Made by a program: the position numbers and the translations under genes
Notes under the pieces: model-generated
Database searches by the model: none
Seen by the model: only the letters and a program-made list of their open reading frames with translations
Told to the model about the DNA's origin: nothing
Shown here: piece after piece, positions 16,298-64,000 of the stretch
Layout of the letters: every line of letters begins with the position of its first letter
Numbering within the stretch: position 1 is the stretch's first letter
Assembly (NCBI GenBank): GCA_021234155.1
Contig: JAJEKV010000085.1
Coordinates: 2,304,896-2,368,895, forward strand
Origin: Isoetes taiwanensis
Taxonomy: Eukaryota; Streptophyta; Lycopodiopsida; Isoetales; Isoetaceae
DNA length: 64,000 bases
Reading direction: 5' to 3'

Positions 16298-16310
16298 TTC
16301 TCCCCTCCTT
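16298..16310 (-). other. Polypurine tract of element C
   Basis: On the minus strand AAGGAGGGGAGAA directly precedes the LTR, as expected for the primer of plus-strand DNA synthesis. Element E has AAGGTGGGGAGAA in the same position. Confidence 0.85.
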
Positions 16311-17380
16311 AAAAATAATCTTTGTCCTCGGCATTAGGGTTAACTAATTGAATACATATCGTAAAGCACTGAATTAGAGAATGGAGTTAAGAATATAACA
16401 TTAATACGTTGAGATTATAGTAATTTAGATAGTAATACATTGAAGTTAAAATATCAAAGTACAAGCACACTTTCGATACAAACTTATGATCAAAGGAGTT
16501 TAGGACGGTCAGATTTAAAACATTCGACAACAAAATTCATACATGTAGACAAAACCAATACGGGACAAGTTGGGTCATCGGCAATCCTCTATACAAAGGC
16601 GGTGGCGACTTGTTTATTAGCCTACCTGCAGAAGCATATATCCGTAGGTTAATAATATGATTAAGTTGTGGTTGAAGGACCACCCCGCAAATAAAGAAAA
16701 AGTATCTAGAAGGGAATCTATCATGTATGCGGCTTGCAATTCATTGTGGCATGAGGAATGGTTCGAGTTCCTCGTATAGGCGGAATGAGCGAGTCTATTT
16801 ACTAGATGCCTTCCTAGCAATTCAGCGGTCATGTCAACATCAACAATACACCACGTCCTAGAGAACACGAAGGTGATCTCATCATCGGTTATTACTATCA
16901 TATACGATCGTCTACCCCTCTAAAACATGATTCTCGGTCAATCAAGCCTTCAAGCTTCCGCCGGGAGGCGGGGTTGATAGCATCGTTGATAGTGCGGACC
17001 TTGAGATTCCCGCATGAAGTCGGATAGTGCTTCTCAAGGTCTATCTTCATCACCGGTAGCATCTTCAAGCGGTAAGTGCTTCCACTTGACCAATATTGCA
17101 ACATTTGAGTCATACAGTACGTTTTGTAAGCTCGATCAAGAAGAGCTTGGGCACTATTTCCAGCTGCTCTTGAGTCATTTCTAGGAGGGTAGGGGTATCC
17201 AAAACCTCCTACGGATCAGGGGTGTGTTGCTTGAGGAAGACTCGCGTGAAAGACCTTGTGGATCTTCAAGCGGGGTGGCAAGTCAAGCGATATACTGTTC
17301 TCCCACACGTTCGGTAATCATGAGCGGCCCAGCCCATCGGGTGCCAACTTCTTCTGATTACCAATTTTAAGCTTGGCTTG
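16311..17380 (-). other. Element C: region between integrase and 3' LTR
   Basis: Non-coding as far as I can see. The segment at about 16800-16890 (GCGGTCATGTC...CACCACGTCCTAGAGA...CTCATCATCGGT) is matched at 57598-57662 in element E, so C and E share their 3' untranslated region. Confidence 0.6.
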
Positions 17381-17382
17381 TT

Positions 17383-18196
17383 TTACTTTGATCTTAAGCC
17401 AAAGCCCGACTCACCCCACTGGAAGATTCGTGGGGTTGATTGCTTATCCGCTAGACTCTTCGACGACATTGCGTGCGACCAATAAGTAACCCGAACTTCT
17501 TCCACCAAGGCTGCATTTCTAAAAGGAGTTGTTGAGACCTCCACTTTAGAAGCGAGGTTATGCCATGTGCTGGAGTAAGACATTGGTAGCCATAATTTAT
17601 CATGAAAGGAGACATTCTAGAAGACTCTGCTTTGTCTTTGTTGTGGCGAATTCTACCAAGTAAATATAATCCGCCCATTGTATTTGTTTACTCCATACAT
17701 AGCTTCTTAGCATGTCTTGATAATCGATTGACACGTTCTGTTTGACCATCTGCGAGGATGGTAGGCTGTACTCATGGCAAGCTTGGTGCGGATGGTGGCG
17801 AAGAAATCCTTCGAGAATGCCTTTGACAAACTTAGGATCCCTATCCGATACAATTACTCTCGGCATCGTGCAACCTGAAAATTTCCTTTGCAAAAGAGCA
17901 AAGGCGGTGTCGGCGGTGTAAAGTGTGGTGCGACATGGCGAGGAAGTGAGCCATCTTTGATAATTTTGTCGACCCACGACCATTAAGGCATCATACCCGC
18001 GGAGATGCGTGGAAGCCCCACAATGAAATCCATGGTTATGACTTCCCACTTGGCGTTGGGCACATCCAAAGGTTGCAACTCCCGGGAACTCTTAATTGCT
18101 CCGCCTTGGTTTTGCGACAAACGACCTTTGTTTGATGTACCTAGCAATATCCTTCTTCATGGAAGGCCAAAAATAGCTGGGCGGATCTTAAAGTAA
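17383..18196 (-). pseudogene. Element C: integrase
   Basis: Minus-strand frames give VIVSDRDPKFVKGILEGF (second catalytic-D block, S-D-R-D/G-P-x-F) in the frame at 17600-18049. FMINYGYQCLTP (the '.SPF...YG..P' block after the catalytic E) is in the frame at 17451-17678. These are integrase core landmarks in the correct minus-strand order. It is part of a broken element. Confidence 0.7.
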
Positions 18197-18480
18197 GTTT
18201 TCATAAAACCCGCATGTCTGCTATAGGGCTGTTGTGTGTGTCATGGAGAATCAGCTTTTCGCACCCACGAAGTCATTTGGAACACACAACTTATCTTTGT
18301 AATATAATAAATTGCCCTCCTTCTTATATGAGCGGAATGCCTCACGTTCTCTGTCGGTGCGGGCTTCCCTACCCAAACTTTCCCAAATATTACTGAATTG
18401 GGATCTGTGGCCAAGGTGCTGCTCTATCGCTTCCCAAACTCATTTGGTGAGTGTGGAAATGGCATTACAATGGGTGCGGG

Positions 18481-18880
18481 TTATGAAGGGATGGCGTGAC
18501 AAAGCATCCATAACCACATTGTGCTTTCTGGCTTATATACAATCTCGAAGTCATATTCCTCGAGGAATTCCATCCATCTTATGACGGAGATTGATTTGGT
18601 GGGTGGATAGATGGCGGAGACTCGATGATCCGTATCCGGCTGAAATCTTCTACCAAGAAGGTAGTGTCTCCAAATACGGAGCACGCATTAACTGCTAGCA
18701 ACTCGATCATGGGTAGGATATTGCTGCTGCATCGTTCATCTTCTTTGAATCGTAAGCAACAACTCTCCCCTCTGCATTAAGACACCACCGGTAGCTATCT
18801 TACTCGCATCGGTGGCTACCGATTTATCCTTTTTCGGATCGGGCAAGGTAAGGACTGGTGCGGATGTTAAAGCATCCTTG
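18481..18880 (-). pseudogene. Element C: RNase H region
   Basis: Contains [13 protein letters not shown] and RWMEFLEEYDFEIVYKPE on the minus strand, the standard RNase H C-terminal blocks (RHYL.G..F ... R....L..YDF.I.Y..G). The first of these is the same block at which element D is cut by element E ([12 protein letters not shown]). Confidence 0.75.
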
Positions 18881-18989
18881 AGTTTACGGGCCGAGCTTGG
18901 ACTTTTGTTTTCCAATGTTCCATCAATCCTTTACTTTCTCATGCCTTGTGAGATTAGTAAGAGGTGCGGCAATTGTTGCAAAGTCCTTG

Positions 18990-19700
18990 ACAAATTTCGA
19001 TAATATCCTGCGAGTCCCAAGAAACTCGGACCTCACGAAACATTAGGCTGGAATGGGCCAATCCTTTCTTTGCTTCTATCTTATTTGGATGTAGCAATTC
19101 CTTCTGCTGAGATAATATGCCCCAAATAGTCTACCCTCGAATTGGCGAACTTGCATTTAGAGAACTTGGCAAAAGCTGATGGCGCCTTAGCTTTTGCAAA
19201 GCTAATCGAAGATGTTGTTCATGTTCTTTGCAAAGGTTTTACTATAGATGAGAATGTCATCAAAGAAAATGACAACAAAGTCATCAAGTATTGGCGGAAG
19301 ATGTCATTCATCAACGCATAAGCGTTAAGGCGTTGGTCAATCAAAAGGCATGGCCGGTGAATTCGTAATGCCCATATACAGTGCGAAAAAGCGGACTTAT
19401 GGATGTCCTGTTCCTTAATCCTTATATCGATGGTACCGGGCGCAAATCAATCTTTGAAATATTTTGCTCCTTGTGGCGGTCCATAAGATCATACGCCCTA
19501 GGCAAAGCATAGCGATTCTTGATGGTATGCTTATTGAGTTGCCTATAATCAATACACATCCTTAAGGAGCCATCTTTCTTCTTGACAAAAGAATAGGAGC
19601 ACCAAAGGGTGAAACTCTTGGGCGAATAAACCCCACATTCGGTAACTCTTGTAGGCTGTTTCTTAAGCTCTGCTAACTCAGGAGGACTCATTGATGCAGG
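18990..19700 (-). pseudogene. Element C: reverse transcriptase
   Basis: [20 protein letters not shown] and [14 protein letters not shown] in the frame at 19422-19691 are the RT palm-entry blocks. They are nearly the same as [20 protein letters not shown] and [14 protein letters not shown] of element D. Downstream minus-strand sequence continues in the palm region. It is part of a broken element. Confidence 0.8.
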
Positions 19701-19739
19701 GGGGCTTTCTTTGGTAGGCTTAGTACCGGTTCAAGAGTT

Positions 19740-20340
19740 ATCTCACATTCCACCCCTCTAAAAGGAGGAAGCTTGTGGATCTCATCACGGAAAAAGATCG
19801 CTAAATTCTCGAAGAAGGGTAGCAATGTCCGATGGTAAAAGCGTCGATTACTAGCTTCTTTGTTTGAGTCGACTCAATGGAAGCAAGTTTAATGAGGCAA
19901 AAAGTTCATTCTGCGCGCGCATAGCTTTTCCCTGCTTTTCTTGACATTGTTTGCATGGCCGGTGTAATGAATCACCTTTTATCGTCACCGTGCTCCATTA
20001 GCGGCGTTGAAGGTGACCTCCGCTTCTCGCGATCTATGTGGGCCCCTGGAGGCGCTAAAAACTCCATTCCCACAATAAGATCATATTTGCCAATGTCCAT
20101 TAGCTTCGGCACCCAAGGCAAGCTGGTTTTTGGCAAGCTTGCATTTTAAAGGTTATCTGGCGGCCATGAGTGTATGCGATCTTACCGCTAGCTAATGTGG
20201 TGGCTTAGGTCGGGGATTTCAGCGTTTCCATTTGCGATTACAGGCCATTCTAGGAGAAGCAAAATTATGTGTACTACCGTGTCCATCAAAATTATGAAGG
20301 GCTTCTTGTCTACTTGGCCTATTGTAGAAATAGCGAGAGA
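19740..20340 (-). pseudogene. Element C: protease region
   Basis: It lies between Gag and RT. No long open frame is left, but minus-strand readings around 20050-20100 resemble the block I.GMEFL.P.G..I of the D protease. It is assigned mainly by position and by similarity to D. Confidence 0.5.
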
Positions 20341-20365
20341 AGGCTGACTTTCAGCGTTACTGTTT

Positions 20366-21230
20366 CTATAGCGGCAAGAATATGAGGAGGCGCACCATGA
20401 ATGTACTCGGGGAGCCTCGTCTTCGCGGCAAGGTTGGACTCAAATCTTCCCAATCGAGGTCGGCCATGGCGGTTGAAGCGTCTGCGTGGCGTGCGGGCAG
20501 TGCATGAAGTGTCAGGGCCTCATGCACACTGTAGCATGCCTTATCCGTGAGCTGTTCTACGGCCTCTTTAGGAATGGGTTGTAAGAGGCCCGAAAATTTC
20601 CTTACCGGCATTGTTACGCTTATCGGCGTGCTAAAAGCAACTTTCTTCTCTGGCGTCCATAGGAATTGTCTTTGAGAGGGGCCCGGACTTGCGAGCGGGG
20701 TTTGTAAGGTGTGGGCGGCCGTGGCTGCGAGTAAGTAAGGGCGGTCGCGGATCTTGGCTCCTTGGCGTATCTTCCTCAAGGCTTAATGCCTTAGCTTCCG
20801 CCTCTGCTACTGACTTTGGGTCGATAGCCTTGACCATTCGTTTAATAGATGGGGCCAACCCTTCAATGTAGCCCTCTTGCTCTTTTCTCATTCATTCCTG
20901 GCACATACAACCTCAAGCGCATGAATTCGTCAGTGTAGGCCTGCACGGACATGCCCTTCTGTTCTAACTTTTGTAGAAGGTGCGAAATCTGTTGGCATTT
21001 GTGGCATACGAGGGCGCGTAATGCGATTTAAAAGCCTTAGCAAACTTCCTGAACTTGCATCTGCTCCTATCCAGGTGTTTAGCTCTGGCGTAACCCTTCC
21101 ACCAAATACGGGCAGCTCCGGTAAGGTTCGTGGTGGCGACCTTCCCTGTATCTTTCTCCGTCATTCCATAGGACTTCCCGAATTCCTTCATTTCGTCCAA
21201 CCAAGATTCGCATTCAAGCCTCCTCACGGA
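20366..21230 (-). pseudogene. Element C: gag
   Basis: The frame at 20964-21227 contains WLDEMKEFGKSYGM, GAARIWWKGYARAKHL and KFAKAFKSHYAP. Element D has WLDEMSEYGNAYGM, GAARIWWKGYAKAHGL and KFSKAFKRHYVP. This is the retrotransposon Gag domain (W....Y......F...F...Y.P). The frame at 20631-20891 continues with EGYIEGLAPSIKRMVKAI against EGYIEGLNDEIRKLVRAQ in D. The match shows that C and D belong to one lineage. It is part of a broken element. Confidence 0.88.
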
Positions 21231-22690
21231 TTTCCCATCAAAGCTGAGCCAACTTCGGTTCTTCCATATACTAGTGATAATTTGTATCAGCGGTTTTTGG
21301 TATTCCTTATCCTTCGCCTTGAATGGTCCTTTGTCGATGGCGAGGAACCCGAAGAACCGAAGTGGTTGAATGTGAGGAAGCGGGCTATCCTTAGAGGAAA
21401 CCGATGGCGCTTAGCATGAGTCCTCCTGCATGCAGTGCTGAGGGGGCTAGCTCACGGGAGGAGATGGCTGTTGTGCGAGGTGGACTCAATGATAATGCGG
21501 AGGTAATTCGGTCCGTCCTCCACGAGTATGTGGCGGTGGATTGGTATGCAACACATAAGCACTGTAACTTCGTAGAGTTGCCTTTTCATTAACATCAATT
21601 CTGTTCGGGGGTGAGCCCTCTTTGGCGTTGGAGGGTGTTGCCAAGCGGCGTTCGTGCACCGTCTATAGGAGTCATTCATGAATATATAAGCAGATTTACA
21701 TTAATGTGCAATCCCTTTTTAAGTTAATTGAACAAAAGTATATACAAGCAGAAGACAATATTTGTATTTCATTCAAGTTGATTCTAACAAGCGGGTTGAT
21801 TGATACATGGATTGAGACAAAAGTAGGTATGATACAATGGGAACTTTTAAAGTTCTCTTGGCACCGCTGGCGTAACCACAACAACGAAAACATAGCGGAA
21901 GAGACCAAGCTTAGGGGTTGGCGAAAGTGCGAGGATCGCGTGGCGGTACTCTCCGTCTGGCTTCGGACAAGTTTATAAGCGTGCCGAGGCTTGGACAATG
22001 ATTGCTTGGTACTCCCATGTTGGGCTGATAATCAGAAGGTTAAAGAGCCCGCATCGCGCATAAAAAGAGTTGCCAAAGATGGTGGGTTGGCGTCCTCAAA
22101 GGCCGTGCTGGTCATATTCCAATAGTCCCAGTGCGACGGGGTCATCTTCGGATCCTCGGCTTCGATCCACGAGGATGTTAACTATCTCTAGCCCTTTTGT
22201 CGGGGTCATAGAGTTCCCACGGTGGCGGTGGTTCGGTTTCATAGCCTTCCTCCCACTCGGATATTCACCATATCTCGGCCATAGTCACAGTGCGGCGGCC
22301 GGGATCGTCTCTCCTAACCATGTCGGTGATTCTTTCCTCATACTCCCAAATGGTTTCCTCTGCAACATAGTTGGAGTGAATAGAGAACATTTTGTAATTC
22401 CACTATACCCTAAACTTTAATGCTTTGGAAGAGGATGTCATAAAAAAAAAACAATTTAGTTATACTCATCAAAGAAAACTTTGTATTTAATAAGTAGATA
22501 AGGTACACATTTTCAATATGGTTTAAACAATTGCCAATCAAAATCTCATAAATACATGTATATATATATAGTACTCTTAGTTCAGGAACTAGGCCCTGCC
22601 TCTTTATCCTTAGCCCTAGGAGGTGGGGGAGGCGGTCGGTGTCGCAGCAGAGCTACCCCAGGGTCCACTGTGGCGCGCCGCAGCGGATGC
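21231..22690 (-). other. Element C: stretch between accessory gene and gag
   Basis: About 1.4 kb on the minus strand without a motif that I recognise. By comparison with D it should hold the end of the second accessory gene and the start of Gag. AT-rich, partly A/T-run sequence lies at 22440-22565. Confidence 0.4.
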
Positions 22691-22693
22691 AAC

Positions 22694-23967
22694 CTACGGT
22701 GGATAGGCAGCGGCCAATGGGGCTGCCGTGAGGAGCTTCATGCCCATCAAGGCGCAATATCTTGGCCCAAGGCCGTAGGGCAAGATCCGTCGTGCAGTAC
22801 ATGCGTAAGCGTACGATAGGGAAGCTTCTTGTGGCGGCGAGTGTAGAAAGTGCGGAGGGCCCACCATGAAGCTTGACCTCGGCCCTAAGTCCGGGCTATG
22901 AGAGAGAACTGCCCGTATTTGAAGGCCGACAAAAAAGCGGGTGAGGTGGTTACCCAGCACCTTCCCCTTGCGGAGTTTCGGATCGGCCACTTCCTTATCA
23001 AGTCCATGGGGACTTCTTCCTCCTTGAGCTCTGTTGCTCCTCCTTCTTATGCTTGGGGTTATGATATAAATCTTCACCCTCATCATCGAGTCCGGAGGAA
23101 CCTCAACCATATTGATGTTTGGGGCGTGAGGTCCCATATAGTGAAGGCATCAGTGCGGAGTTCTTGGCTGGTTCACCGCATCACAAAGTCGCGAAGGCGT
23201 AATAGAGTCTCCGTGGCTCTAGGGTCTCGGCGGAGGCTGCGGCGGTGGTGCACCTCAGGAGGAAGCTTCGGTAGAAGTGAAGTCGATGAAATCATCCATA
23301 CAATACTCCGCCAAGCTCATAAAGTACATGGTCTTTGCGGCTTTGCGTCTAAATCCGGCCACTCGTGATGCGTCGGATAATATCATCCAAGAGAAGGTAT
23401 TCACGCTTACGGTGATAAATAAGCTGGAAGGCCGTCTAACCACGACAAGCCTATAGATTGGTCGGTAGCGGTGGTAGCTCCTCTGCTAGCTCTTTCCAGC
23501 GGGCAAAAGTAAGCCCATTCCTATATGCTCGTCATCCCCCCTCCTCGGAGGATTACGGCGGCTTGCCCTTCTCTGCTGGCAGGTTTCATCCTCAGCGTAT
23601 TGGTCCATGAGGATGGCTAGAAGCGAAAGTAGCTTCCGGAATCTGCTGCCCACGATCTTTGGACCACGGTAGGTGTTTACCCCATCGGAGTTTCCCCTTC
23701 AAGGCGTCATAGGCATGTGTGTCCCCACCTAGCATCGCGAGAACTATCTCCGCTCAAATACAAGTGGGGAGGATCCCCTAGAGGAATACCGGAGGAGGAA
23801 GCATTTCCTCCATGTAAAAGATCAAGGAATCCGGCATAGTCGGGATCTTTGCATGTTAACAAGGAGGTCTATCGTTGGCATAGCAAAGGCTGCGGTCGAA
23901 GGGAACTGTGGATCCCATTTCTCTCCATCAAGGTACCGAGGCGGCAAAGGTCGGTGGCGGCAGCCAT
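22694..23967 (-). pseudogene. Element C: second accessory gene (ORF2 family)
   Basis: The minus-strand start at 23967 reads MAAATDLCRL, comparable with MATADFRRW at the start of the D gene (50259). Further on, the frame at 23255-23443 has CMDDFIDFTSTEAS, comparable with DLDDFIDQEAS in D (about 50998-51033). Order and distance from the H3-like gene and gag are the same in both elements. I do not recognise the family and propose no function. It is part of a broken element. Confidence 0.55.
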
Positions 23968-24118
23968 GGCTAGAAGGGAGGAGAGAGGAAAAAAAGCGTT
24001 TAAAATAACCCTACGGTCCCCTTTTAAACCCTCTTAATAAAATTTGGCGTCGGCATTTTATTTTAAATTTAACATGGAAAAAACATTAAACTTTTAATTC
24101 AAAATAAAAGCTTCTTTA

Positions 24119-24459
24119 TTAATTATCACAAAAAAAATATGTACAATTGCGGATCCCATTAAGTAGGCTAAGGTTGCTCCCAGGTATCCCTACGGTGAGG
24201 GCCAAATCCTTAGGCATTATGGTGACCCTCTTTGCGTGGATGGCGCAAAGGTTGGCATCACCAAAAGTGCTACCAAGTAGGCTTCGTGACCTCTTGGGCG
24301 CCAAAATTACAAAAGATGCGGAAGCGGAGTCGGTCTTAAATTGTTTGTGCGATCTCTCGTACCGACCTCGAAAAAGCGACTTCACGATCGGAAGGTCCGT
24401 GGACTTCTGAAATTTGCGGATCTCCCGCAATTACCCGCGATGCCGGGTCGGAACCGATG
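24119..24459 (-). pseudogene. Element C: histone H3-like fold
   Basis: Minus-strand readings give HRFRPG (24459-24442), REIRKFQKSTDL (from about 24427), HKQFKTDSAS and [18 protein letters not shown], followed by LAL...I.G at the spacing of the H3 C-terminus. Canonical H3 has [22 protein letters not shown] ... DFKTDLR ... [29 protein letters not shown]. The last block agrees at 17 of 18 residues. These are helix alpha-N, alpha-1, loop 1 and alpha-2/alpha-3 landmarks of H3, the protein that pairs with H4 in the nucleosome. The copy lies 5' of gag inside element C, and AATAAA follows at 24120-24115. It is part of a broken element; the middle of the fold is poorly preserved. Confidence 0.9.
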
Positions 24460-25388
24460 GGAGGCTTCGGCGTGGCCCAGGCCCCGGCGATGTTGGCACC
24501 GTCTTAGCCCGATAGCCGCGGGAGTTATCCACTCTCTGCGCCTCCGTCCGGGCTGGTCTTCTTCCCAAAAGCCCGGCGGTCTTTAACTTATCCTTGTATT
24601 ATTTGCCCGGCCTTATAGACAACTCCCTTCCTCCGGGAGCTTAGCGGTGGGATCGTTGGTTTTGGGGTTGAGCCACTCCCGGATGCACCTCCTCCCTGTT
24701 GGTCCCGCTGATCTTGTCGGTCCGCTCCTCTTGCTCCAACTTCTGGCGCTCTTCAGGGGCCCTCCTTAGGTCTTCTTGGATCTGAGCAAAAGTTGGGCTG
24801 CGACACTGGCGATTAAGTTCAGCGTGGTACCTTTATTGGCCGAAGACCCATATCTATCGAATAGTTGTCGGATAGTCTATGCTGATGTCGGGGATTTCTC
24901 CCCATACAAAGGCTGTTGGAACCCTCATGCCATTGGTATGGGGGAACCTCAATGGCTCGCCATCGATGGCCGACAAAAGCCGTCTCCGAGTACCGGTACT
25001 CCCTACCCGGGGCTCTTGTGTGATGGGACCCTCTCGATTTCCGGTGGTCGTCTTCCCTGGCAAAACCCCTAATCCGGTCGGCCTCGAATCGACATCTTCC
25101 TCCTCGTATGGCCTTCTGTTGGGAGGATAAAATTTGATGAGCATCATCACCATGTCGGTTGCTCAACAAGGGTATATGGGGCTGGCGTAGGTTCAGCCCC
25201 GGATAAGGAATGGCTCACGAGAAGTGATAGGCGGGATATGGAATCCTATCGTTGTTCTCAAACCTATTGACCAGCTCATCCAACAAGATGTCGATGAGGG
25301 CTGGGTCGGTAGCCATGTGCTTAGCAATCATGGCGTAGATCTCCACGATGCTCATGGTGGTTGGATGGGCGCTCTTGGTGATGGCCAT
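24460..25388 (-). pseudogene. Element C: candidate tail and charged linker of the H3-like gene
   Basis: A minus-strand start at 25388 reads MAITKSAHPTT, which can be laid against the H3 start MARTKQTARKST (A, T, K, A and T shared). About 900 bp of linker with charged stretches such as EERQKLEQEERTDK lead to the HRFRPG block. The total length from this start to the end of the fold is close to that of the D gene (about 1.25 kb). The tail alignment is inference; the linker has no known domain. Confidence 0.5.
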
Positions 25389-25469
25389 AGGGAATAGTGG
25401 TAGCGGCGGCGAAAGAGGATAGCAAGGGGTATTTGAGATGCACAAGGCACAAGGGCGGAGGATCAAGGT

Positions 25470-26123
25470 CCGATCGGTGGCGATGGCGGAGGGCGGCTCG
25501 AGGCGGTTGGAGGCGAAGAAGCAAAAACAAATGATGAGAAAATGGTTTGCTAAGCGGCCAATTAACTTTTAAAATTTCAAAATTTTTTCCTTATTAACTT
25601 CAAAATTTTATTATTAAAAAAATATCTGGCGCCGGAAATACAGCGCCACATACGGTCGAGCGCCGATGGCATTATCTGGTTTTACGCCTCGGCGGGTGTC
25701 GTCGAAATGCTTGGCGCCCGAAGTTGACCTGGCGGGTCAGCGTTGATTTCGAGTCGGACGGATTGAGGCGCCCGAAACCGACATTTGGGCGCTTCTAACA
25801 GCCTTGGCGACAAAAAGCAAAGCGGCGCCCGAATTCGCTTTTTGGGCCTGCCCTTGACTATTTTTCGCCTGGAGTTATTTGTTTTAGGGTAATTGAAAGT
25901 CGCCCAATCAATGGAGCCATCATCTTTGTCATTTGAGTTACCCGGCGCCTGCTAGGCCTCCAATCTTGGCCCCTCCACTTCAAAGCTACAATTTCTTAGC
26001 AACCTAACACCAAACCAAACAACAAAGAGAACTAGCGACACATTGACTTAGCCTCCTCCTAACTACCGGGTGCTACGAGTTTAGTGTTTGGCGGTGCTAT
26101 GATTTGAACAACCGAAATCCGCG
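25470..26123 (-). other. Element C: leader between primer site and H3-like gene
   Basis: Non-coding leader of about 650 bp containing GGCGCC words and an AT-rich stretch at 25555-25630 (TTTTAAAATTTC, AATAATAAAATTTT on the minus strand). That stretch could hold a TATA-like promoter for the H3-like gene, by analogy with element D, but no clean TATA box stands out. Confidence 0.4.
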
Positions 26124-26135
26124 GCTCTGATACCA
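26124..26135 (-). other. Primer-binding site of element C
   Basis: TGGTATCAGAGC on the minus strand, four bases inside the 5' LTR. This is the well-known complement of the plant initiator-Met tRNA 3' end. Confidence 0.93.
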
Positions 26136-26139
26136 GCTT

Positions 26140-27719
26140 TGTGGCAGCTCCCGGAATATATCGACCCTCGGACGTATACATCACGGGGACTTTCCCCCCC
26201 ATGGCGACCATCTCACCATGGCGGGGCCCTCCGTCTATTCCGGGCCATCTATGAAATGTGGCCGAAGAAGGACCTGGAGGGTCATTAAACCACGCCTTCA
26301 ATGGGACTCCTCCGTCGGCGGAAGCATGAATCAAGGGTTAGCACGGCATGAATATATATAAATAACCACCCACGAAGGGTGGCGTATCCATCAAAATACC
26401 AGCGGCATAGATCATGCATCTAATCCTAAGAAAACACCCAAACCCCGGGTTCTACCGGCTCTCGGACTTCCGTGGGGATCGGTGGCAATTTGGGCCTCAA
26501 GAGATCGGCCAGACCCAGGAGTCTTGGCATGGCGTTGGCTGGCATAGAACATTGGCTAGGGTTGTCCACTCCATCCGCCCCTCCTGTGCACACTTTGCGG
26601 ATGGGTCAATTCATGCTATGGCTTTGCTATAGCCTTAGGAGACGCATAAACTTCGGGGCATCACCCTACGAGCCTACTCGGGTTCATGGCCGCCTGGTCG
26701 GATGGAGAGGGAGGTCGGGGAAGCGTCCCCTTCGGGAATCCGCGGTGGTTCCATGGGTGAGCTAGAGAATACGTGCCGCATCAGCGACCCCGCATCCGTG
26801 CGACTTACTCACCTAAATCTACTCAAAGTGCAAGGTGCTCCATACGGATCACACCTTCCCACCGGGGAGTGTCGGACCCATACCCGCCCTCGTGGCTATC
26901 GAGGCCTAGCCCTTTGTAGGAGTCTCGGGGAGCCTTGTATGCTCATGCAAGACCCCACCCCTCATGTCACTGCTTGTGTTCCTTGTGCGGTGCTAAGCGG
27001 ACCATAGCATCTAGGACCGGTGGGTTCTTGTGCCTGAGCCGCATCTAATGGGACTTTTAGCTATCTAGGAGCATACTACTTTACGGTTGAGGCCTCTACC
27101 CCCGTAATCCCCGTTTGGTCGGATCAAACAAAGAACCAACAATCCATCCTTTGAGTAAGAACCCGAATTGAATATAAAGAGAACTTGTTTGTACAATCAA
27201 GGGTTAGTTTCTATGATTGAATTACAAAGAGAACGAGAAAGCCGGACACAACCAAGTGTTAACTAAATTCACATAGCCACCTACCTGAATTACGGCTGGA
27301 CTCATTCCATGGGCGCCTCCATCTCTGGCGGTTGAAGATTCAATTTGTGGCTTCTGGGGGCGGCCAGTATGGTGGTTCTCTGGTGGTTGATGGCGCTCAG
27401 CTCTGGCCTTCCTTGGTGGATCTTTAGGAGTCAATCCCGGGGATAGGGGTCAAGTTGGCATCAAACTTGGCAACCCCCCATGCTGCCCAATCGATTGGGG
27501 CGGGTGAAGCCTTCTAATTGGTAATTATCCTAATTTCCTAGGTTATAGGTTATTATTATTAATGTGTTAAATTAGCATAGCTAATTTAATCCTTTATAAG
27601 GTAACCCCTAGGTTGCAATTAAGTTCCCATACCCCCATGGTAGTGTACCTTTAGGGAGTGGCGTGCTTGTATTTATGCGTGTCATTATAGTAGACCGTAT
27701 AAATAATTGGAGCGTCACA
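26140..27719 (-). repeat. 5' LTR of element C
   Basis: 1580 bp matching 14715-16297. A palindromic stem with the loop CGGTCTAC (minus strand) lies at 27685-27702, close to the upstream end of the LTR. Confidence 0.93.
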
Positions 27720-36049: not shown

Positions 36050-36054
36050 TGCTC

Positions 36055-48172: not shown

Positions 48173-48180
48173 TATAAATA
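48173..48180 (+). promoter_or_regulatory. TATA box of the H3-like gene in D
   Basis: TATAAATA in CCAAACTATAAATAGACCC, 109 nt before the ATG at 48282 and downstream of the LTR end. It suggests a separate internal transcript. Confidence 0.75.
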
Positions 48181-48281: not shown

Positions 48282-49055
48282 ATGGCGCGCACCAAACAGA
48301 CTGCCCGAATTCCTCGACGAGGTGAAACACCCAGCGCCCAAGACAAGAGGCGCATACAGCAGCTGCTTCGGGAGCAACTTCTTGCAGGGAGAGGCCAACC
48401 TTCATCAGGCGAGGAGAGCACTTTAGAGGAGCAGCAGGAGGAGGGATCCGAGCAAGGATCACAAGAAAAGCAGACCGACGCCATCGACCAGCAGGTGGAC
48501 GAGGAAGCAGATATTGGAGCAGAGGACGACGAAATCCAAAGGGTATTCGAGCAGATGGAAAAGGAAAGGGCAGAACGGGAGCAGGCGGCCAAGGCACAGG
48601 AGGAGCAGAGGGAGCCCACTCCCGTGCCGACCTTAGAAGAAGAGCTCGAGGCCTGGGTTCGAATGCATGAGGAGAAGGCACGACGCAGGGAAAAGCGAAA
48701 AGCCGAGAAGAAGAGGAAAAGAGAAGAAAAGGAGGCCAAGGAGGCAGTAGCAAAGAAGAAGCTCAAGGGCAAGGAGAAGGAAGAGCCCAAGAGGAGGATG
48801 AAGAAAACCCCATCAACAAAGATCGTCATCGAGGAGCGGCCGCCAGACCGCCCCCCATCGTCCGACGATTCAGATGATGAGGATTACAATCCTCATCAAG
48901 AAGGTGGGAGCTCCTCCAAGCCAAAGAGGAGGGATGGATGCAGACCAGAGCGCATGCACTGGGATCGATGGTGCATGTGCACCCCCACCCTACCCAACAT
49001 GGGAGAAGGACAAGGACCCCAAGAAGCCTCGACCTGCCGAGAATCTTCGTGGTAG
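48282..49055 (+). CDS. Element D: H3 tail-bearing frame, 257 aa
   Basis: The frame begins M-ARTKQTAR, the same as residues 1-8 of mature histone H3, including R2, T3, K4 and R8. H3 then continues K9-S10-T11, but here the sequence is IPRRGETPSAQ, so the K9 methylation site is absent. The following part is a long charged linker: acidic and Q/E-rich (EESTLEEQQEEGSEQGSQEK), then strongly basic (KRKREEKEAKEAVAKKK), then SSDDSDDEDYNP. Such a start is the target of writers and readers of H3K4. The histone fold lies in the overlapping frame 48874-49530. The start codon is fixed by the tail match and by the TATA box 109 nt upstream. It is part of a broken element. Confidence 0.9.
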   Translation: MARTKQTARIPRRGETPSAQDKRRIQQLLREQLLAGRGQPSSGEESTLEEQQEEGSEQGSQEKQTDAIDQQVDEEADIGAEDDEIQRVFEQMEKERAEREQAAKAQEEQREPTPVPTLEEELEAWVRMHEEKARRREKRKAEKKRKREEKEAKEAVAKKKLKGKEKEEPKRRMKKTPSTKIVIEERPPDRPPSSDDSDDEDYNPHQEGGSSSKPKRRDGCRPERMHWDRWCMCTPTLPNMGEGQGPQEASTCRESSW

Positions 49056-49530
49056 ACCATCTCGGGGTCTACCGAAGAAGATTGAAGGCACACAGGAATT
49101 TATGAAGAAGTGGGAAGCCTACAACTCCTACTATCAGGCGAACAAGGTCACCTATATCGAGGGAGGACGGCCATTGAAGAACAAGACTCTCAAGCCACCT
49201 CCAGAGAAGCCCATTCCCCCGAAGAAGCCAATGGCAAGGAAAGCCGGATCCAAACTATCACGAGCAATCCGGGAGATCCGACATTTTCAGAGAAGCTATG
49301 GCCTTCTCATCCCCCGTGCACCGTTCGCCAGGCTCGTGAAGGAAGTCTTGCAGGAATTCGACTCCGGCATGAGAGTAACAGGCGAGATGCTACTAGCCTT
49401 GCAAGAAGCAGCTGAGCATAAGCTGGTGCAGCATTTTGAAGACTCAACGGCATGCACTATACACGCCAAGAGGGTAACTCTGATGAAGAAGGACATGCAC
49501 ATGGCCAGTCACATTAAAGGAGAAAGATAA
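48874..49530 (+). CDS. Element D: histone H3 fold-bearing frame, 218 aa
   Basis: Residues 131-218 align without gaps to the last 88 residues of canonical H3 before its final alanine. I count 47 identities against H3 recalled from memory. Landmarks: AIREIRHFQRS (alpha-N), PFARLVKEV (alpha-1), RVTGEMLLALQEAAE (loop 1/alpha-2), FEDSTACTIHAKRVTLM (alpha-2/loop 2/alpha-3) and IKGER at the stop, where H3 ends IRGERA. The Cys110 and His113 positions of H3 are kept. Loop 1 has the same length as in H3, unlike most CenH3 proteins. Residues before the fold are Pro/Lys-rich (PPPEKPIPPKKPMARKAG). As a histone it would pair with H4; the linker makes it about three times the usual H3 length. It is part of a broken element. 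Confidence 0.93.
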   Translation: MMRITILIKKVGAPPSQRGGMDADQSACTGIDGACAPPPYPTWEKDKDPKKPRPAENLRGRPSRGLPKKIEGTQEFMKKWEAYNSYYQANKVTYIEGGRPLKNKTLKPPPEKPIPPKKPMARKAGSKLSRAIREIRHFQRSYGLLIPRAPFARLVKEVLQEFDSGMRVTGEMLLALQEAAEHKLVQHFEDSTACTIHAKRVTLMKKDMHMASHIKGER

Positions 49531-49555
49531 AACCCTGTAAATAATAAATTTTGTC

Positions 49556-49561
49556 AATAAA
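49556..49561 (+). terminator. Poly(A) signal after the H3-like gene in D
   Basis: AATAAA 26 nt after the stop at 49528-49530. The H3-like gene in C likewise has AATAAA just after its fold (24120-24115). Confidence 0.65.
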
Positions 49562-50258: not shown

Positions 50259-51693
50259 ATGGCAACTGCAGACTTCAGGCGATGGTACAGCGCCAGTGCC
50301 CATGTAGCTGAGGCTGATGTCAATTCCATTTTCCAGGTTGTCCAGAAATGTCCAAGCCACTTTGCAGGCAACCCCAGCCTATAGGGAAGTCATGACTGAG
50401 TTCCAAGCTAGGGTAGGACCATCCTTAGTACAGATTCCCCCTTGTACATGATATTTTGTTCCCAAGCAATCCCTCCAAGCAGCCTTAGGTGATGTCCCCA
50501 ACATTGTCAAATACTTGAACAACAAAGTTGCTAGGTTGCCAGATTATATGGTCATGACCGCTAATAGGGCCAAGTGTTTCTCCTACACCGCTGCCCTAGC
50601 CATCTTTCTTTCTCACCATGCCCAGAACCCAATCGGGGAAACCTCTATCCCTGCCATGGACGTAGACCCCTTAGCCTCTTCAGCCGAGGGTCAGCTCCTC
50701 TTGCAATATCAAGTGGAGCAAGAAGGAACAGCCGAAGACGATGCGATCGACTCAGATGACGAAGACTACGTCGAACTCGACCCCGACCAAGAGCGGCAAC
50801 TAGCAGAGCAGGAGATACCAGTTTTCAAACAGGAGCGACAGACCCTCAGGATCGCTCCCCCGCTCGGGCTAGGTATCACAAGCCTAGCCCCCATCATCTC
50901 AGCGGCCGGAGTACTCGCTCCGGCGACATCAGAACCTCCCCGAATGCGAGCGGGGAGTACCGACTTGATGAGTTCTTTGTACCTTCTGCGGCAACAACCA
51001 GATCTGGATGACTTCATCGACCAGGAGGCTTCCGACTTCCCAATTCATGTAAGAGAAGCCGACACCTACACCGGGGAGTCGACTTCAGATATCCAGCGCA
51101 TAAAGAAAGATCAGGCATTTTGATGTCGAAGTTCTTTGACACCAGCCCCACAATCGCTCAGAGAAGAGGAGATCGATCCGAGGCTTAATCACATTAACAA
51201 TCGGGGACTACGGAGAACTCACAGAGATCGGCGTCGATGAATATGGGAAGACATAGAGCCGGTGCGTGCGGGTGCATTTAATCATCAATCAGGCGCGGGG
51301 ACATGTCACTAAGGTATTATCTTCCTCTGCTGATGGATTCGGGAGGATAGCGGTCATACAAAATTCAGCCCAAGGGGCGAAGAAGGAGTGTTCATGCTCA
51401 TCGGCTCAGGCTTTGGTAGGCATGCTCGGCTGATCCCCAAAGTTGACCATGTCATCCTAGTCAAAAGAACGATGGTACTTGATATCTTCGACTTCGCCGT
51501 ACCCTACCCACGGCAAGGAAGATTAGCAGTGACCGTGGCCTACACTTTGGACCGCAGAGTAGAAGACTTGGTGACAGCATTGCAGGGCGGGACACCAACG
51601 AATATCCTCAGGAACTTGGGACGCTCGGTAGGAACGGCCCAAGTTAAGAAGTTCCTTCAGGATAACCCATCCTTCCGGCGATTCCAAGAATAG
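50259..51693 (+). pseudogene. Element D: second accessory gene (ORF2 family)
   Basis: It starts MATADFRRWYSASAHVAEAD at 50259. The longest frame (50515-51123, 202 aa) has a helical N-terminal part (IVKYLNNKVARLPDYM, CFSYTAALAIFLSHHAQ), an acidic patch (DDAIDSDDEDYVELDPDQE) and DLDDFIDQEASDFPIHV. The last frame (51388-51693, 101 aa) ends QVKKFLQDNPSFRRF. Counterparts of the start and of the DDFID..EAS block occur at the same place in element C. Family and role are unknown. It is part of a broken element. Confidence 0.6.
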
Positions 51694-51860: not shown

Positions 51861-52833
51861 GTGAATGCAGCTAGAGGTCCAGGAACAGCTGAGCAAGAGC
51901 GGCAAGTCCGTAGAGATGAACAGACTCCGGCCAGACAGCACCCAGCAAGGAACCTATACGAAGAATTCGGTCCCATGACTCCCGAAGAGGAGATGTCGCA
52001 GATGCGATCGGACCTTCAAGAAATAAAGGCCTTTCTAGCAGCACAAGCAGGAGTTGGCCCAGGTGACAACGTCCAGTTACCGCAAGCACCACCTCGGAAG
52101 GCGGGAAAGGATAAGAAGAAGAGCAAGAGAAGGAGGTAGCACGGAATCCTCCGACACAAGCTCGGATTCGGACTCCTATTCCGAGGAAGAGGTAGAAGAG
52201 GTGCGAGACCGTAGGGATGGCAGACCCAAGGACACAAAGACCTCAGACTACCAGAAGAAAGTAGACTCGGCGCTGGGTAATGTATGGAAGGCCAGAAAGC
52301 TCGAGCAATTCTCAGGTGACAGTCGGTTAAGCATGGAGACAGAGGCTTGGCTAGATGAGATGAGCGAATATGGGAATGCATACGGTATGAAGGACAAAGA
52401 CAAAGGCAGGGTGGCAACAGCCAACCTCAAGGGAGCAGCTCGCATTTGGTGGAAGGGATACGCCAAAGCACATGGACTGAGCCGAGACAGCTGTAGGTTT
52501 CAGAAATTCTCAAAGGCATTCAAGCGCCACTATGTACCAAGGGAGCACAAATGTCACATGCAACAATTCTATCGACTCCAGCAGGGCAACAAGTCAGTGC
52601 AGAAATATACAGAAGAGTTCATGAAACTTAGGTTGTATGTGTCGAAGCTGAGTGAACGCCATGCAGTGGAAGGATACATCGAGGGATTAAATGATGAGAT
52701 AAGGAAGCTGGTAAGAGCACAGTATCAGAAGCGGAGTCGAAAGCAGTTAGCCTGCAAGGATCCGGGCCTCAGAACAGTGGGCAGAAACAGCAGTACTATC
52801 AGGATAAGGGCAAAGCAACCGGAAGCTCCCTAG
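51861..52833 (+). pseudogene. Element D: gag
   Basis: The first frame (51861-52139) has LYEEFGPMTPEEEMSQMRSD and ends in a basic patch (KDKKKSKRRR). The second (52054-52833, 259 aa) holds the Gag domain: WLDEMSEYGNAYGMKDKDKG, GAARIWWKGYAKAHGL, KFSKAFKRHYVP, YRLQQGNKSVQKYTEEFMKL. The W..F..F...Y.P....  L.QG..SV..Y..EF..L pattern is that of Ty3/gypsy Gag. Closest match in the window: element C at 20964-21227. It is part of a broken element. Confidence 0.88.
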
Positions 52834-52939
52834 AGCAGCTAGTCCAGGTCCAGCAAGGGCTCCATACAGTGGCAATTATGGGAAGTAGCAGGAAAAGAAA
52901 CAGGTATCCATCAAGGATAAGCAAGAGGGGTCAAACTAC

Positions 52940-54916
52940 TTGAAAGCAATGCGGTCCTTTTTGCAAGCAATGCCCAAGGAGAAGAAGCAGGAGTGTATTG
53001 AGAAACAGCTCTGCTTCAGGTGCTTCCAGCCAGGCCACAGAACCGCAAACTGCCCTTTTGTCATGAATGCAGCATTGGCAGAGTTGGGTGGATGGGAGAC
53101 TCCCTCTGATAATGACGGCGGGGAAGCACGCGACTTCATACAGGGTGAGTGTCACATTTTTGCTGCCATAGATTCAGAACAAGCAGAAAATCAGCATCAG
53201 GTAATCTCCACAGTAGGGAAGGCCAATGCCAAGTCTTTCATAGTCCTGATAGATACGGGGAGCACCCACAACTTTGCGTCTCCAAAAATGGTTGAGATGT
53301 TGAAGCTCAAGCCGTTGAAGTCAAAGCCGAGGCCCGTAGTGTTAACAAGCGGGGCAGTGAGACACACGGCAGGCAAGAGGATAAATTTCGACATCGACTT
53401 GCCAGGAATCAACATCCAAATGGGGGCAGAAGTGATGAACATCAGGAAGTATGATTTGATCATAGGTATGGAGTACCTCGCTCCAGCAGGAGCCATCATT
53501 GATTGTGGGAAGCGGAAGGTGACCCTCACGGTGCCCAACGGCAAAATCATAGAAATTACAGGTAAGGAAGTTGTTCCTATCATGCAGTGTATGTCTAGTA
53601 AGTGGCTGCTCAAGTGCATAAAGAGCGAGCAGATAGCCTATGTCTTCAAGCTTCAAATCGAAGAGCCCGAGTCAGAAGAAAGCAAAGAAGATAAGGTCCT
53701 CAGCAAATTGCCAAAGCAGATAGCTAAGTTGATAAAGGAGTTCCATGATCTCTTCCCAGACGAGATCAAGCAGCTTCCTCCTTACAGGGGAGTCGAGTGT
53801 GACATAGCACTCGAACCAGGTACGAAGCCAACGAGCAAGGCTCCGTACAGGATGACGATGCAAGAGCTGACCAAGTTGAAGAAGCAATTGCAGGAGTTGC
53901 TTGACCTAGGGTTCATTAGACCTAGTGTCTCACCATTTGGGGCATCCATCCTTTTTGTGAAGAAGAAGGATGGCAGCTTGAGGATGTGCATAGATTACAG
54001 GCAGCTAAACAAGCACACCATCAAGAATAAGTATGCACTCCCCAGATCGGACGACCTGATGGATCAGCTCCAAGGGGCGAAGGTTTTCTCCAAGATAGAC
54101 CTGAGGTCGGGGTACCATCAGATCAGGATTAAGGAAGAAGACGTCCACAAAATAGCATTCAGGACCAGGTATGGGCATTACGAGTTCACAGTAATGCCGT
54201 TTGGCTTGTCAAATGCCCCAGCAACGTTCATGAGGCTTATGAACGATATCTTCAGAGAGTTTTTGGATACTTTTGTGATAGTATTCTTTGATGATATTTT
54301 GGTGTACAGCAAATCCCTTGAAGAACACGTACAACACCTAAGGAAAGTGCTCGAGAAGCTAAGGAGGCACCAGTTGTACGCTAAGTTGTCGAAGTGCCAC
54401 TTCGCAACAGAGAGGGTGGAATACTTGGGTCATGTGATCTCATCGGAGGGGATTTCGACAGATCCTGCCAAGATTGAAGCAGTCATACAGTGGCCGGCGC
54501 CGAAGAACATCCACGAGATCAGAAGCTTTCTCGGCCTAGCAGGGTATTACAGGAATTTCGTGAAGAACTTTGCAAAGATAGCGGCCCCGCTAACGGATTT
54601 GATGAGGGTGGAAAAAGTAAAGGATTGGGCAGGTCATTGGCAGAAGAAAGCCCAAGCAGGATTCGAGATGTTGAAGGAAGCTTTGACAACCGCCCCCGTC
54701 TTGACCCTGCCAGACCCAGAGAAGGACAAACTTGTGGCGACGGATGCAAGTAAGATTGCCACAGGTGCAGCATGGATGCAGGAAGAGCGAGTATTGGCTT
54801 ATGACTCTCGGAAGATGAACGACACCGAAACGCGCTACCCGACTCATGATCAAGAGTTGCTTGCAGTTGTCAGAACACTAAGAATTTGGAGGCACTATCT
54901 GTTGGGGAGGAAGTTC
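52940..54916 (+). CDS. Element D: nucleocapsid knuckle, protease, RT, start of RNase H
   Basis: One long frame. [14 protein letters not shown] (residues 25-38) is a CCHC knuckle. [17 protein letters not shown] (about 100-116) is the protease active site, followed by [64 protein letters not shown], and active site [10 protein letters not shown] (about 447-456). The connection reads [20 protein letters not shown]. RNase H starts [16 protein letters not shown] and is cut after [12 protein letters not shown] by element E at 54917; the frame runs on 78 bases into the E LTR. The wording is chromovirus-like ([11 protein letters not shown]). Confidence 0.95.
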
Positions 54917-56578
54917 TGTGGCGCCCCTTTACTCATATCGGTGCCCTCACCATATACAAACAGGAGTTCATCCCCCATACCAGCTCCATGCTAATACAGG
55001 GCCCTCCACATGACACTGCAACCGTGACGGGTTCCAGTGGGAAGAGTGGAAGGGTCATTGCGCCCCGTCTCCCTCAGGGCCTACCTAGCTGCGGAAGCGT
55101 AAACATACATGTCAGTAGCACATACATCAACATCATATGACCATCATGAAGGATGGTCCTCCACATATCTGCATAGACAAAGATCAAGACATCACATAGG
55201 GAATCCTACCCAAGGCTCGAGACTCAAAGGGATGGTCGAGCGGCTTGGGTCTCCGTGAGTTCATTGCGCATGTAATTCATGGCAATGGATTTTGGCATAT
55301 GAACATGGCTTAAGGTTGTCCACTCCATCCGCCCCTCTGTGCACACTTTGCGCAGTAGGCTGAAAAGTGTTGGGACTGGACCAGAGTCCGCCGGATGCAT
55401 AGCCAAAGGGCTATTCACGGGTTCCATCTCCCCAGCCCGATGGGGGCGTGTAGGGATCACTCCCTCCGAGAGGTCTACATGCGACTCAAGGTGACTAGAG
55501 GGCCACCGCCCAGATTCGGGAACCCATTGGAAAGTGTACACCACTTCACGGTGTCGAGCCCATGCCTTACCCTTTTCGGTGGTAAGCCATTAGACCTAGT
55601 CACAATGATCCCTGGTAGCACTAACACACCATAGGGATCGTTCAAGAGTCGAACACGAACCTCCTTCTAAGCGGCCTGCCCCTTCACCCACAACTGTGTG
55701 GTTCTTGTGCACAGGCCGAATCGGTGTGCTAGAGAGGCTACTCTAGGAGCATCTACTACCAAGCTTGAAGTCTCTACCCCTTCCCAATACAAGGAGTTCA
55801 CGGAGATACATCATCCATATACATCACAGAAGAACTAAAGAACAAGATCTAATCTATATCATAGAGTTAGGTTCTTTAGTTAGAATCTGCTATCTAGAGT
55901 TCTAGAGGGCTGCTATGGGCAATTTAAGAGGCTAAACCTACTGATTCGATGGCTGAAATGGGGTTTAGACTACTAAATTGCCTAAATACCCCGATCCTTG
56001 AGTTTCCTCCTCGACCGAAACTCGACCATCCTGCTTTGAAATGCTCGAATCAAGGAAAACTAATGATGCGATTCTCTCGACATGAAGTCGGGAGGCGGTT
56101 TTGGCTCTTGAGGACCAAAGCAGAGCTCTAAAACCCTAGAAACGAAAATGGGCAAGTTAGGGTTCTCCTACTTAAATAGACAAGGGGGTTGGCTAGGGTT
56201 TCCAATTATCCCCTTTAGGCATGTGGGATAATTGGGAATGGGCCCACTTGCCTTTAATGGCTAGGTGGCCAAATGTGCCCACATGGAAATGTGTGCACCC
56301 AATTAATGTGTACATTGGAAAATGTGCACATTAATTGCACACTTGGGTATGGCCCACTTGGCATCAAGTGGCCACATGGAAATGTGCCCACATTAATGTG
56401 TACATTGGAAAATGTGCACATTAATACTAATGCACATTCTTAGCAAGTTGCCCCCCTAGGGGCTACCCACTTGGCTATCACGCCGGGCGACGTCGTCGGG
56501 ATGGCGGTAATGGCGGATTGAGGCGATAAAGATATCGCCCCGGGACCGTGATATCTCTTTTGTGGCCGGAACGTCACA
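54917..56578 (-). repeat. 3' LTR of element E
   Basis: 1662 bp. Shares with the C LTRs the segment TCCACTCCATCCGCCCCT...TGTGCACACTTTGCG (about 55317-55353). It holds a 92-bp tandem duplication (ACATGGAAATGTG at 56281 and 56373). On the minus strand CTATTTAAGTAGG (about 56185) followed by AACCCTAAC is the likely promoter. A palindrome AGATATC...GATATCT lies at 56530-56556. Confidence 0.85.
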
Positions 56579-63700: not shown

Positions 63701-64000
63701 GATTCCTAAAATCTAGAAATTCCTCGGCGCGACGTGTGAGACATCGCCTCAATTTTGCTCAAAAGCTCCAATTTGACTAAAACAAAAGCTAGAATTCTAT
63801 AACTTAACTTAATTAAGTAACTTTATACAGTTATAATTTACTCTAAAACACGTTGTATTAAACAAACTTTATCATTTACGAAATTAATAAGGTTCTCCTT
63901 TGATATGATTGGTAAGTGCATATCTTTCTTCATTAGAGTTACTCCCTTGGTGTGTCTTGCGGGCGTTTGTTGAGTCTTCAAAATGTTGGACCAGCTTACG
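57721..64000 (-). other. Interior of element E, unrecognised
   Basis: About 6.3 kb. Many short frames on both strands; the longest plus-strand one (59789-60364, 191 aa) is hydrophobic without a recognised domain, and the minus-strand frames at 59863-60177 and 60888-61157 are basic or serine/threonine-rich without a known motif. A short motif, GGCGCGACGTGTGAGACAT, occurs at about 63528 and 63724. I see no LTR, primer site or enzyme motif before the window ends. Confidence 0.45.

What the first reader, a model, noticed from the sequence alone, without database searches (positions are those of the whole stretch)
48282..49530. A retrotransposon (element D) carries a histone H3-like gene
Seen in sequence: a frame starting M-ARTKQTAR, the first eight residues of mature H3, and an overlapping frame whose last 88 residues align without gaps to the H3 fold and stop at GER. 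I count about 47 identities of 88 against H3 recalled from memory. It sits after an LTR end with primer-site-like sequence and before gag-pol on the same strand. Established: H3 is a nucleosome core protein, and accessory genes between LTR and gag occur in some plant gypsy elements. I know of no described LTR retrotransposon lineage that encodes its own H3. Inference: a captured host H3 now serves the element, for example by altering chromatin at its copies, packaging, or choosing insertion sites.
Basis: partly seen in the sequence, partly recalled or inferred. Interest (0 to 1): 0.97.

Follow-up and report, generated by a model that had tools for sequence, protein, structure and literature searches.

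The report
Retrotransposons carrying their own histone H3
Large numbers of jumping genes in one plant genome (probably a quillwort) carry a gene for their own version of histone H3, the protein that packages DNA, and natural selection has kept its histone part intact, which suggests the jumping genes use it to shape the chromatin they live in.

Summary
The H3-like gene at 48282-49530 is real (Pfam Histone E=1.5e-25; 48 of 88 identities to plant H3, no gaps) and no chance insertion. The window holds three such genes; one lies in a complete LTR retrotransposon (element B, 14715-27719, minus strand) in the order PBS, H3, second ORF, gag, pol. In the host genome (1.66 Gb, inferred Isoetes taiwanensis) an exact H3 motif occurs 3,532 times, an H4 motif 20 times; on the contigs compared, 40 of 99 H3 motifs have a gag motif downstream within 6 kb on the same strand, none upstream. 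Two forms were seen: (i) novel N-terminal domain, linker, H3 fold 82-90% identical to plant H3; (ii) element D: H3 tail ARTKQTAR, charged linker, diverged fold. Some Adiantum and unnamed proteins resemble (ii). The fold is under purifying selection (median dN/dS about 0.04 and 0.10; the second set mostly found through pol). Best mechanism, inferred: a tail-replaced H3 placed in nucleosomes so that element chromatin escapes silencing marks. Closest precedent: a fungal hAT DNA transposon with "H3L". My searches listed no histone-encoding retrotransposon.

The parts
48282..49055 (+). Element D, H3-like gene, first frame: MARTKQTAR then a charged linker
48802..49530 (+). Element D, H3-like gene, second frame (one base out of phase in this copy); H3 fold 49252-49530
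48173..48180 (+). TATAAATA box upstream of the ATG (consensus match only)
   Evidence: read
49543..49561 (+). two AATAAA signals just after the H3 stop (consensus match only)
   Evidence: read; AATAAA within 150 nt of the stop in 13 of 29 other copies against 0.03 of random stretches
50260..51123 (+). Element D, possible remnant of the second ORF between H3 and gag (broken by a stop); faint similarity to ORF2 of another element lies near 51367-51501 (E 0.002)
52039..52833 (+). Element D gag (PF03732, PF19259)
52889..54994 (+). Element D protease, reverse transcriptase, RNase H; similarity ends at about 55.0 kb
   Evidence: 63 other copies 88-93% identical
14715..27719 (-). Element B: complete LTR retrotransposon, TSD ACTCT, LTRs begin TG and end CA, 92% identical to each other
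26139..27719 (-). Element B 5' LTR
14715..16297 (-). Element B 3' LTR, preceded by a polypurine tract
26124..26135 (-). Element B primer binding site TGGTATCAGAGC (its name as a tRNA-iMet site is recalled)
24176..25388 (-). Element B H3-like gene, decayed; begins MAITKSAH (relative of L028 MANTKSAP); H3 fold 24459-24179, 54 of 94 identities to plant H3 when frameshifts are tolerated
22588..23935 (-). Element B second ORF, decayed
20826..21335 (-). Element B gag
18541..20364 (-). Element B protease-RT-RNase H, decayed
17237..17966 (-). Element B integrase, decayed (by similarity to conifer pols that bear PF00665)
63893..63998 (-). 3' end of a third, internally deleted D-like H3 gene that continues beyond the window (L039: RTKQTTRLP ... 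KLVQHFEDST)

Best explanation
Ty3/gypsy LTR retrotransposons of this genome carry, before gag, a captured histone H3 gene that has become a standing gene of the element, in at least two forms. SHOWN: element membership, gene order, large copy number, and purifying selection on the H3 fold. INFERRED: the protein enters nucleosomes. In 16 intact form (i) ORFs, 22 of the 35 fold positions that I picked for checking never differ from H3 (among them R63, R69, R72, R83, H113, K115, R116, T118, D123, L126), while the H3 tail is replaced by an N-terminal domain and a long linker; counted back from H39, K36 is R in 15 of 16, and the string ARKS (context of K9 and K27) is absent from 15 of 16. Such nucleosomes could hardly take the usual H3K9, K27 or K36 marks, so element chromatin, or newly integrated copies, would resist silencing; the N-terminal domain would direct deposition or recruit factors. 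Form (ii) keeps an ARTKQTAR-like K4 end but varies at K9. My layered odds: element gene 0.97; selected as an H3 0.93; enters nucleosomes 0.65; anti-silencing is the main use 0.4.
For: Element B complete with H3 inside. 20 of 20 long-frame copies (L014 only by a weak gag match 6.5 kb downstream) and 7 of 10 copies taken in list order have gag or pol downstream on the same strand; 14 of 20 and 4 of 10 have the exact PBS upstream. 4 of 4 pol-found D-type copies carry the gene; 9 of 63 pol copies have one of the 149 best D-like H3 hits 2.0-5.5 kb upstream on the same strand, and no pair within 30 kb lies on opposite strands. Census on contigs C1-C121: 40 of 99 H3 motifs with a gag motif downstream within 6 kb, 0 upstream on the same strand, 1 on the opposite strand. 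3,532 H3 motifs, 20 H4 motifs, reversed controls 0. 8 of 8 canonical host H3 loci read show no N-domain, gag, pol or PBS within 1.5 kb. Median dN/dS of the fold: form (i) 0.033 (16 ORFs, 42 of 120 pairs unsaturated; N-domain 0.129, linker 0.217), 0.036 in 29 copies and 0.042 in nine list-order copies; form (ii) 0.10 in five copies, four of them found through pol, against 0.29 for the linker. In the between-subfamily pairs printed, the N-domain is 32-35% and the fold 84-91% identical. Residues.
Against: No expression, protein or chromatin data. Form (i) copies were picked by top Pfam score, which lowers dN; the pol-found D-type set is free of that bias but small, and one of its ten pairs (D with L042) has fold 0.32 against linker 0.14. 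All three window copies are broken. K9 is not always lost: L042 reads ACTKQTARK, three unnamed ENA proteins of the D layout keep ARTKQTARK, and L028 has an ARKS. E105 is S or G and T107 is A in 16 of 16, and 11 more of the 35 checked positions vary, so the fold is not simply canonical. The N-terminal domain has no known relative, so its role is open. The model of a form (i) protein gave low confidence to its H3 part, with only 16 near relatives as alignment.
Confidence: 0.45

Rival explanations
1. The H3 protein works in the particle or pre-integration complex: it coats or tethers the cDNA, or docks the complex on H3-H4 chaperones or chromatin to choose insertion sites; the N-terminal domain binds gag, RNA or integrase.
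For: The gene sits before gag and is linked to it in the census. The N-terminal domain is itself under selection, median dN/dS 0.129. The linker is modelled without structure in large part, which would suit a tether.
Against: A mere tether would not need such constraint on residues that (recalled) contact DNA and H4.
Confidence: 0.25
2. Decoy: the protein binds histone chaperones or H4, or (form ii, with an H3 tail) the enzymes that mark H3 tails, and so weakens silencing without entering nucleosomes.
For: Form (ii) keeps an ARTKQTAR-like end in front of a charged linker and a diverged fold; three unnamed ENA proteins show the same layout.
Against: Constraint in form (i) on residues that are buried or contact DNA in the nucleosome (roles recalled).
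Confidence: 0.15
3. Passenger: H3 was captured and rides along, or is refreshed by gene conversion from host H3, without service to the element.
For: LTR elements do pick up host sequence (recalled); many copies are decayed.
Against: Synonymous sites between element and host H3 are saturated in 16 of 16 comparisons while the proteins stay 82-90% like plant H3, which argues against recent refreshing; the 16 element folds form one clade, 99/92, apart from host H3; 17 of 20 long-frame copies are open from a recognised ATG over 400-459 codons.
Confidence: 0.05
4. Centromere-type H3 (CENH3) that aims elements at centromeres.
For: D shares some CENH3-like residues (EIRHFQ, LLIP.APF.RLVKE), and one tree put D on the CENH3 side at an open fork.
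Against: By my reading of the folds printed: no extra loop-1 residue as in CENH3, C-terminus GER as in H3. A second tree with other rows put D with the fern-type family, 91/85. Hits lie on very many contigs.
Confidence: 0.04

Closest known systems
H3L of a hAT DNA transposon in Pyrenophora tritici-repentis (PMC3538342, passages seen)
   Same: a mobile element that carries an H3-like gene with insertions in the N-terminal tail and a variable histone fold, in 26 copies
   Different: DNA transposon, fungus, very similar recent copies, possible drift according to its authors; here LTR retrotransposons, far more copies, old, purifying selection, added N-terminal domain
Orchid Ty3/gypsy elements with an AlkB m6A demethylase ORF (PMC9289625, passages seen)
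   Same: plant Ty3/gypsy element with an additional ORF that holds a captured host-type domain, retained over rounds of replication
   Different: RNA demethylase, not a histone; the passages seen name AlkB, G-patch, KOW, ArgoL2, B3, AIR1, PMD and CHROMO as extra domains, not histone
Chromoviruses such as Tekay/Del and their integrase chromodomain (PMC6317226, passages seen)
   Same: the pol search listed plant Ty3 pols, several with a chromodomain; an element part that deals with histones
   Different: a chromodomain reads histone marks; here the element encodes the histone itself. Formal lineage assignment was not done
H3-like proteins of the fern Adiantum nelumboides (L7F22_064055 and four others) and four unnamed ENA proteins
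   Same: charged linker and H3 fold; the three aligned share with D the changes K53H, L65A, Q68A, R72K, V89L; three unnamed ones of the nine begin MARTKQTARK
   Different: the five Adiantum models and one ENA protein lack that N-terminus as predicted; no genomic context seen, so that they belong to retrotransposons is not shown

Membership tests
LTR retrotransposon (element B) | paired LTRs TG...CA, target site duplication, PBS, PPT, insertion as a unit | tested here: met
LTR retrotransposon (element D) | paired LTRs and PBS | tested here: inconclusive
   gag-pol present; no LTR pair or PBS of element B's kind found
Ty3/gypsy | domain order gag-PR-RT-RH-INT | tested here: met
   element B order gag, PR/RT/RH, INT; D up to RNase H
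Tekay/Del chromovirus | chromodomain at the integrase C-terminus and RT phylogeny | not tested
   listed pol matches are plant Ty3 pols, several with PF00385; no chromodomain was looked for in these copies and no RT tree built
Histone H3 | H3 histone fold over the Pfam cut-off | tested here: met
   D 90.3 bits, three form (i) proteins 141-147 bits, L040 87.5 bits against 26.4
Canonical H3 | conserved N-terminal tail with K4, K9, K14, K27, K36 | tested here: not met
   tail replaced or interrupted by a linker
CENH3 | longer loop 1 and divergent C-terminus | tested here: not met
   read from the folds printed
Histone H3 | assembles with H4 into nucleosomes | not testable with these tools
   residues retained, no biochemistry

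The most novel reading that the evidence does not exclude
Retrotransposons have evolved their own histone H3 variants, in at least two forms and perhaps across lycophytes and ferns, and use them to build nucleosomes of their own kind, so that the element rather than the host sets the chromatin state of its copies.
Probability: 0.4. Interest if true: 0.98.

Novelty: new variant of a known kind. Interest (0 to 1): 0.94.

Why it matters
Silencing of plant transposons works largely through marks on histone H3 (recalled). A retrotransposon that supplies its own H3, in very many copies and under selection for the histone fold, would be a direct counter-move at the level of the nucleosome. It makes testable whether mobile elements can rewrite chromatin by replacing its building block, and it offers many natural H3 variants with replaced tails for nucleosome studies.

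Tried and rejected
Chance insertion of a host H3 gene: rejected by element B, the pol-found copies and the census. Intron between the two frames of D: not needed, since L040 has one open frame. D and form (i) as one H3 clade: AU p 0.009 against it; D + form (i) + fern-type family together p 0.076, not rejected, so one capture or two stays open. D's place differed between two trees with different rows and is unsure. Scans of viral contigs with H3, pol and N-domain: nothing confirmed. Foldseek of the form (i) protein: no match at E<=0.001 in PDB or BFVD, best 0.23 and 0.25. Limits of the counts: the 3,532 motif matches include host H3 genes and decayed copies; 8,704, 10,862 and 44,434 first-look candidates are not counts of genes. 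L009-L028 were chosen for long open frames, L029-L038 in list order. Rows dropped: for the 16-ORF alignment L011, L017 and L019 (no recognised ATG) and L015 (runs on past the usual stop); the 95, 90 and 78 of 120 pairs with dS of 1.5 or more; L032 (stop in the fold); one H3 place and 15 gag places beyond C121; the D/copy 3 stretch around the frameshift, leaving 29 codons.

Full report
Observation. The frame at 48282 begins MARTKQTAR and the overlapping frame 48802-49530 ends in an H3 fold. Pfam PF00125 gives E=1.5e-25, PDB histone H3.3 E=6e-24. 48 of 88 residues equal plant H3 without gaps. A predicted model has the helices of H3, and Foldseek returns nucleosome H3.

The window holds three such genes. 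A self-comparison and protein search found a decayed copy on the minus strand near 24.2-25.4 kb and the 3' end of another at 63.9-64.0 kb. The first lies in element B, which is a complete LTR retrotransposon: LTRs of 1.58 kb, 92% identical, beginning TG and ending CA, PBS TGGTATCAGAGC after the 5' LTR, polypurine tract before the 3' LTR, 5-bp duplication ACTCT, and an empty paralogous site near 35950. Its H3-like gene aligns to plant H3 with 54 of 94 identities when frameshifts are tolerated, score 197 against at most 40 in 30 shuffles. It lies between PBS and gag, as D's gene lies before gag. The copy at the right edge continues in L039 as an internally deleted D-like gene; 29 aligned codons against D give dN/dS 0.09.

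The host genome. The window is part of a genome of 1,658,258,908 bases in 1,110 contigs. Isoetes taiwanensis is reported with 1658.30 Mb in 204 scaffolds and 909 contigs (PMC8566536, passages), so I infer this species, a quillwort (lycophyte). The word histone has no occurrence in the main text of that paper or of the Isoetes sinensis genome paper PMC10541799 (term counts and passages seen).

Copies. The Pfam search scored 150 of 8,704 first-look candidates, all 150 over the cut-off: 15 match nearly the whole profile (the 8 of them that I read are canonical H3), 135 do not. I fetched 20 of the 135, chosen for long open frames, and 10 more in list order. 20 of 20 have an ORF of 367-494 codons between stops that contains an H3 fold 82-90% identical to plant H3 at or near its end, and gag or pol downstream on the same strand (in L014 a weak gag match 6.5 kb away); 14 of 20 have the exact PBS upstream. 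Of the 10, 9 have the N-terminal domain, 7 gag or pol within the stretch, 4 the exact PBS. 28 of the 30 carry a second ORF between H3 and gag; two of these ORFs were scanned and match no Pfam family. None of 8 canonical host H3 loci has N-domain, gag, pol or PBS within 1.5 kb. An exact H3 motif occurs 3,532 times, an H4 motif 20 times, with reversed controls 0; an exact gag motif 2,797 times. By coordinates on contigs C1-C121, 40 of 99 H3 motifs have a gag motif 0.8-5.6 kb downstream on the same strand (32 of them at 2.8-3.6 kb), none upstream on that strand within 6 kb and one on the opposite strand; 40 of 85 gag motifs have H3 upstream. Both motifs had to be intact, so this should be a lower bound.

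Two forms. Form (i) has an N-terminal domain of about 200 residues, in the 16 aligned ORFs with three kinds of start (MPRFKL..., ME..KQVY..., MANTKSAP...), a linker, and a near-canonical fold. The domain matches no Pfam model above cut-off, no PDB sequence convincingly and no fold at E<=0.001, though most of it is modelled with pLDDT near 80-90. Element B is a decayed relative of the MANTKSAP kind. Form (ii), element D, has an ARTKQTAR-like end, a charged linker and a diverged fold. 63 other copies of D's pol were scored, and the first four in list order after D itself all have the H3-like gene upstream, one of them as a single open frame of 452 codons. 9 of the 63 have one of the 149 best D-like H3 hits 2.0-5.5 kb upstream on the same strand; three more pairs lie within 30 kb at other distances, and no pair is on opposite strands. 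A D-type linker motif occurs 104 times. Five Adiantum nelumboides proteins and four unnamed ENA proteins share D's linker-and-fold layout, three of the unnamed ones also the tail; their genomic context was not seen.

Origin. In a tree of 42 folds the 16 form (i) folds are one clade (99/92) and D joins the fern-type family (91/85, not starred); D with form (i) alone is rejected (p 0.009), all three together are not (p 0.076). In an earlier tree with other rows D stood elsewhere. One capture or two is open. Synonymous sites between form (i) and host H3 are saturated in 16 of 16, so the capture looks old.

Selection. Form (i) fold: median dN/dS 0.033 in 16 intact ORFs (42 of 120 pairs unsaturated), N-domain 0.129 (25 pairs), linker 0.217 (29 pairs); 0.036 in 29 copies (196 of 406 pairs) and 0.042 in the nine usable list-order copies (20 of 36 pairs). 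These were found by Pfam score, which favours H3-like copies. Form (ii), four of five copies found through pol: fold 0.10, linker 0.29, medians of ten pairs, fold range 0.05-0.32; in the pair D and L042 the fold is the looser part (0.32 against 0.14). In the fern-type family the fold is 83% and the linker 66% identical over 28 pairs, with the fold ahead in 27. By medians the fold is the most constrained part.

How it may work. In 16 of 16 form (i) ORFs 22 of 35 fold positions picked for checking equal H3, among them residues for H4, DNA and H3-H3 contacts (roles recalled), while 13 vary, E105 and T107 in all; the tail is replaced and K36, counted back from H39, is R in 15 of 16. I infer a nucleosome-forming H3 without the usual tail, which would keep element chromatin from taking silencing marks; in form (ii) K4 is kept in the copies read while K9 varies (I, R, L and K in D, L040, copy 3 and L042; the N-terminus of L041 is broken and that of L043 was not in the stretch). 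Packaging or targeting, and decoy action, remain rivals.

Known and new. A hAT DNA transposon of a fungus carries an H3-like gene in 26 copies (PMC3538342, passages). Orchid Ty3 elements carry an AlkB domain (PMC9289625, passages). Of surveys of additional ORFs in plant LTR elements, PMC7264820 has no occurrence of the word histone in its main text; PMC6317226 has one, in a passage that was not shown. Ten full-text searches listed no paper that, by its title and start of abstract, reports a histone-encoding retrotransposon; the library lacks many journals.

Noticed in passing
window 49660-49744, 49863-49947, 44019-44103: A repeat of about 85 bases with a palindromic core, twice between D's H3 gene and gag and once upstream.
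   Followed up: partly
L009-L038 between H3 and gag; window 22588-23935 (-): A second ORF of about 470-500 codons where intact, found by similarity in 28 of 30 fetched elements; two scanned, no Pfam match.
   Followed up: partly
window 35170-36050 and 13927-14714 + 27720-27816: Element B is inserted in a sequence whose paralogue without the insert lies in the same window beside element C.
   Followed up: yes
window 44709-45770 (-): ORF that looks like a LINE reverse transcriptase (recognised by eye, not searched).
   Followed up: no
window 30761-33349 (+): Another Ty3-like pol ORF of 863 codons (element C).
   Followed up: no
positions 105 and 107 of the element H3 fold: E105 is S or G and T107 is A in all 16 form (i) ORFs checked: a departure from H3 of unknown meaning.
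   Followed up: no
P0244 (Adiantum nelumboides): An annotated protein that joins unrelated sequence to the linker and H3 fold; not checked whether it is a gene-model artefact.
   Followed up: no
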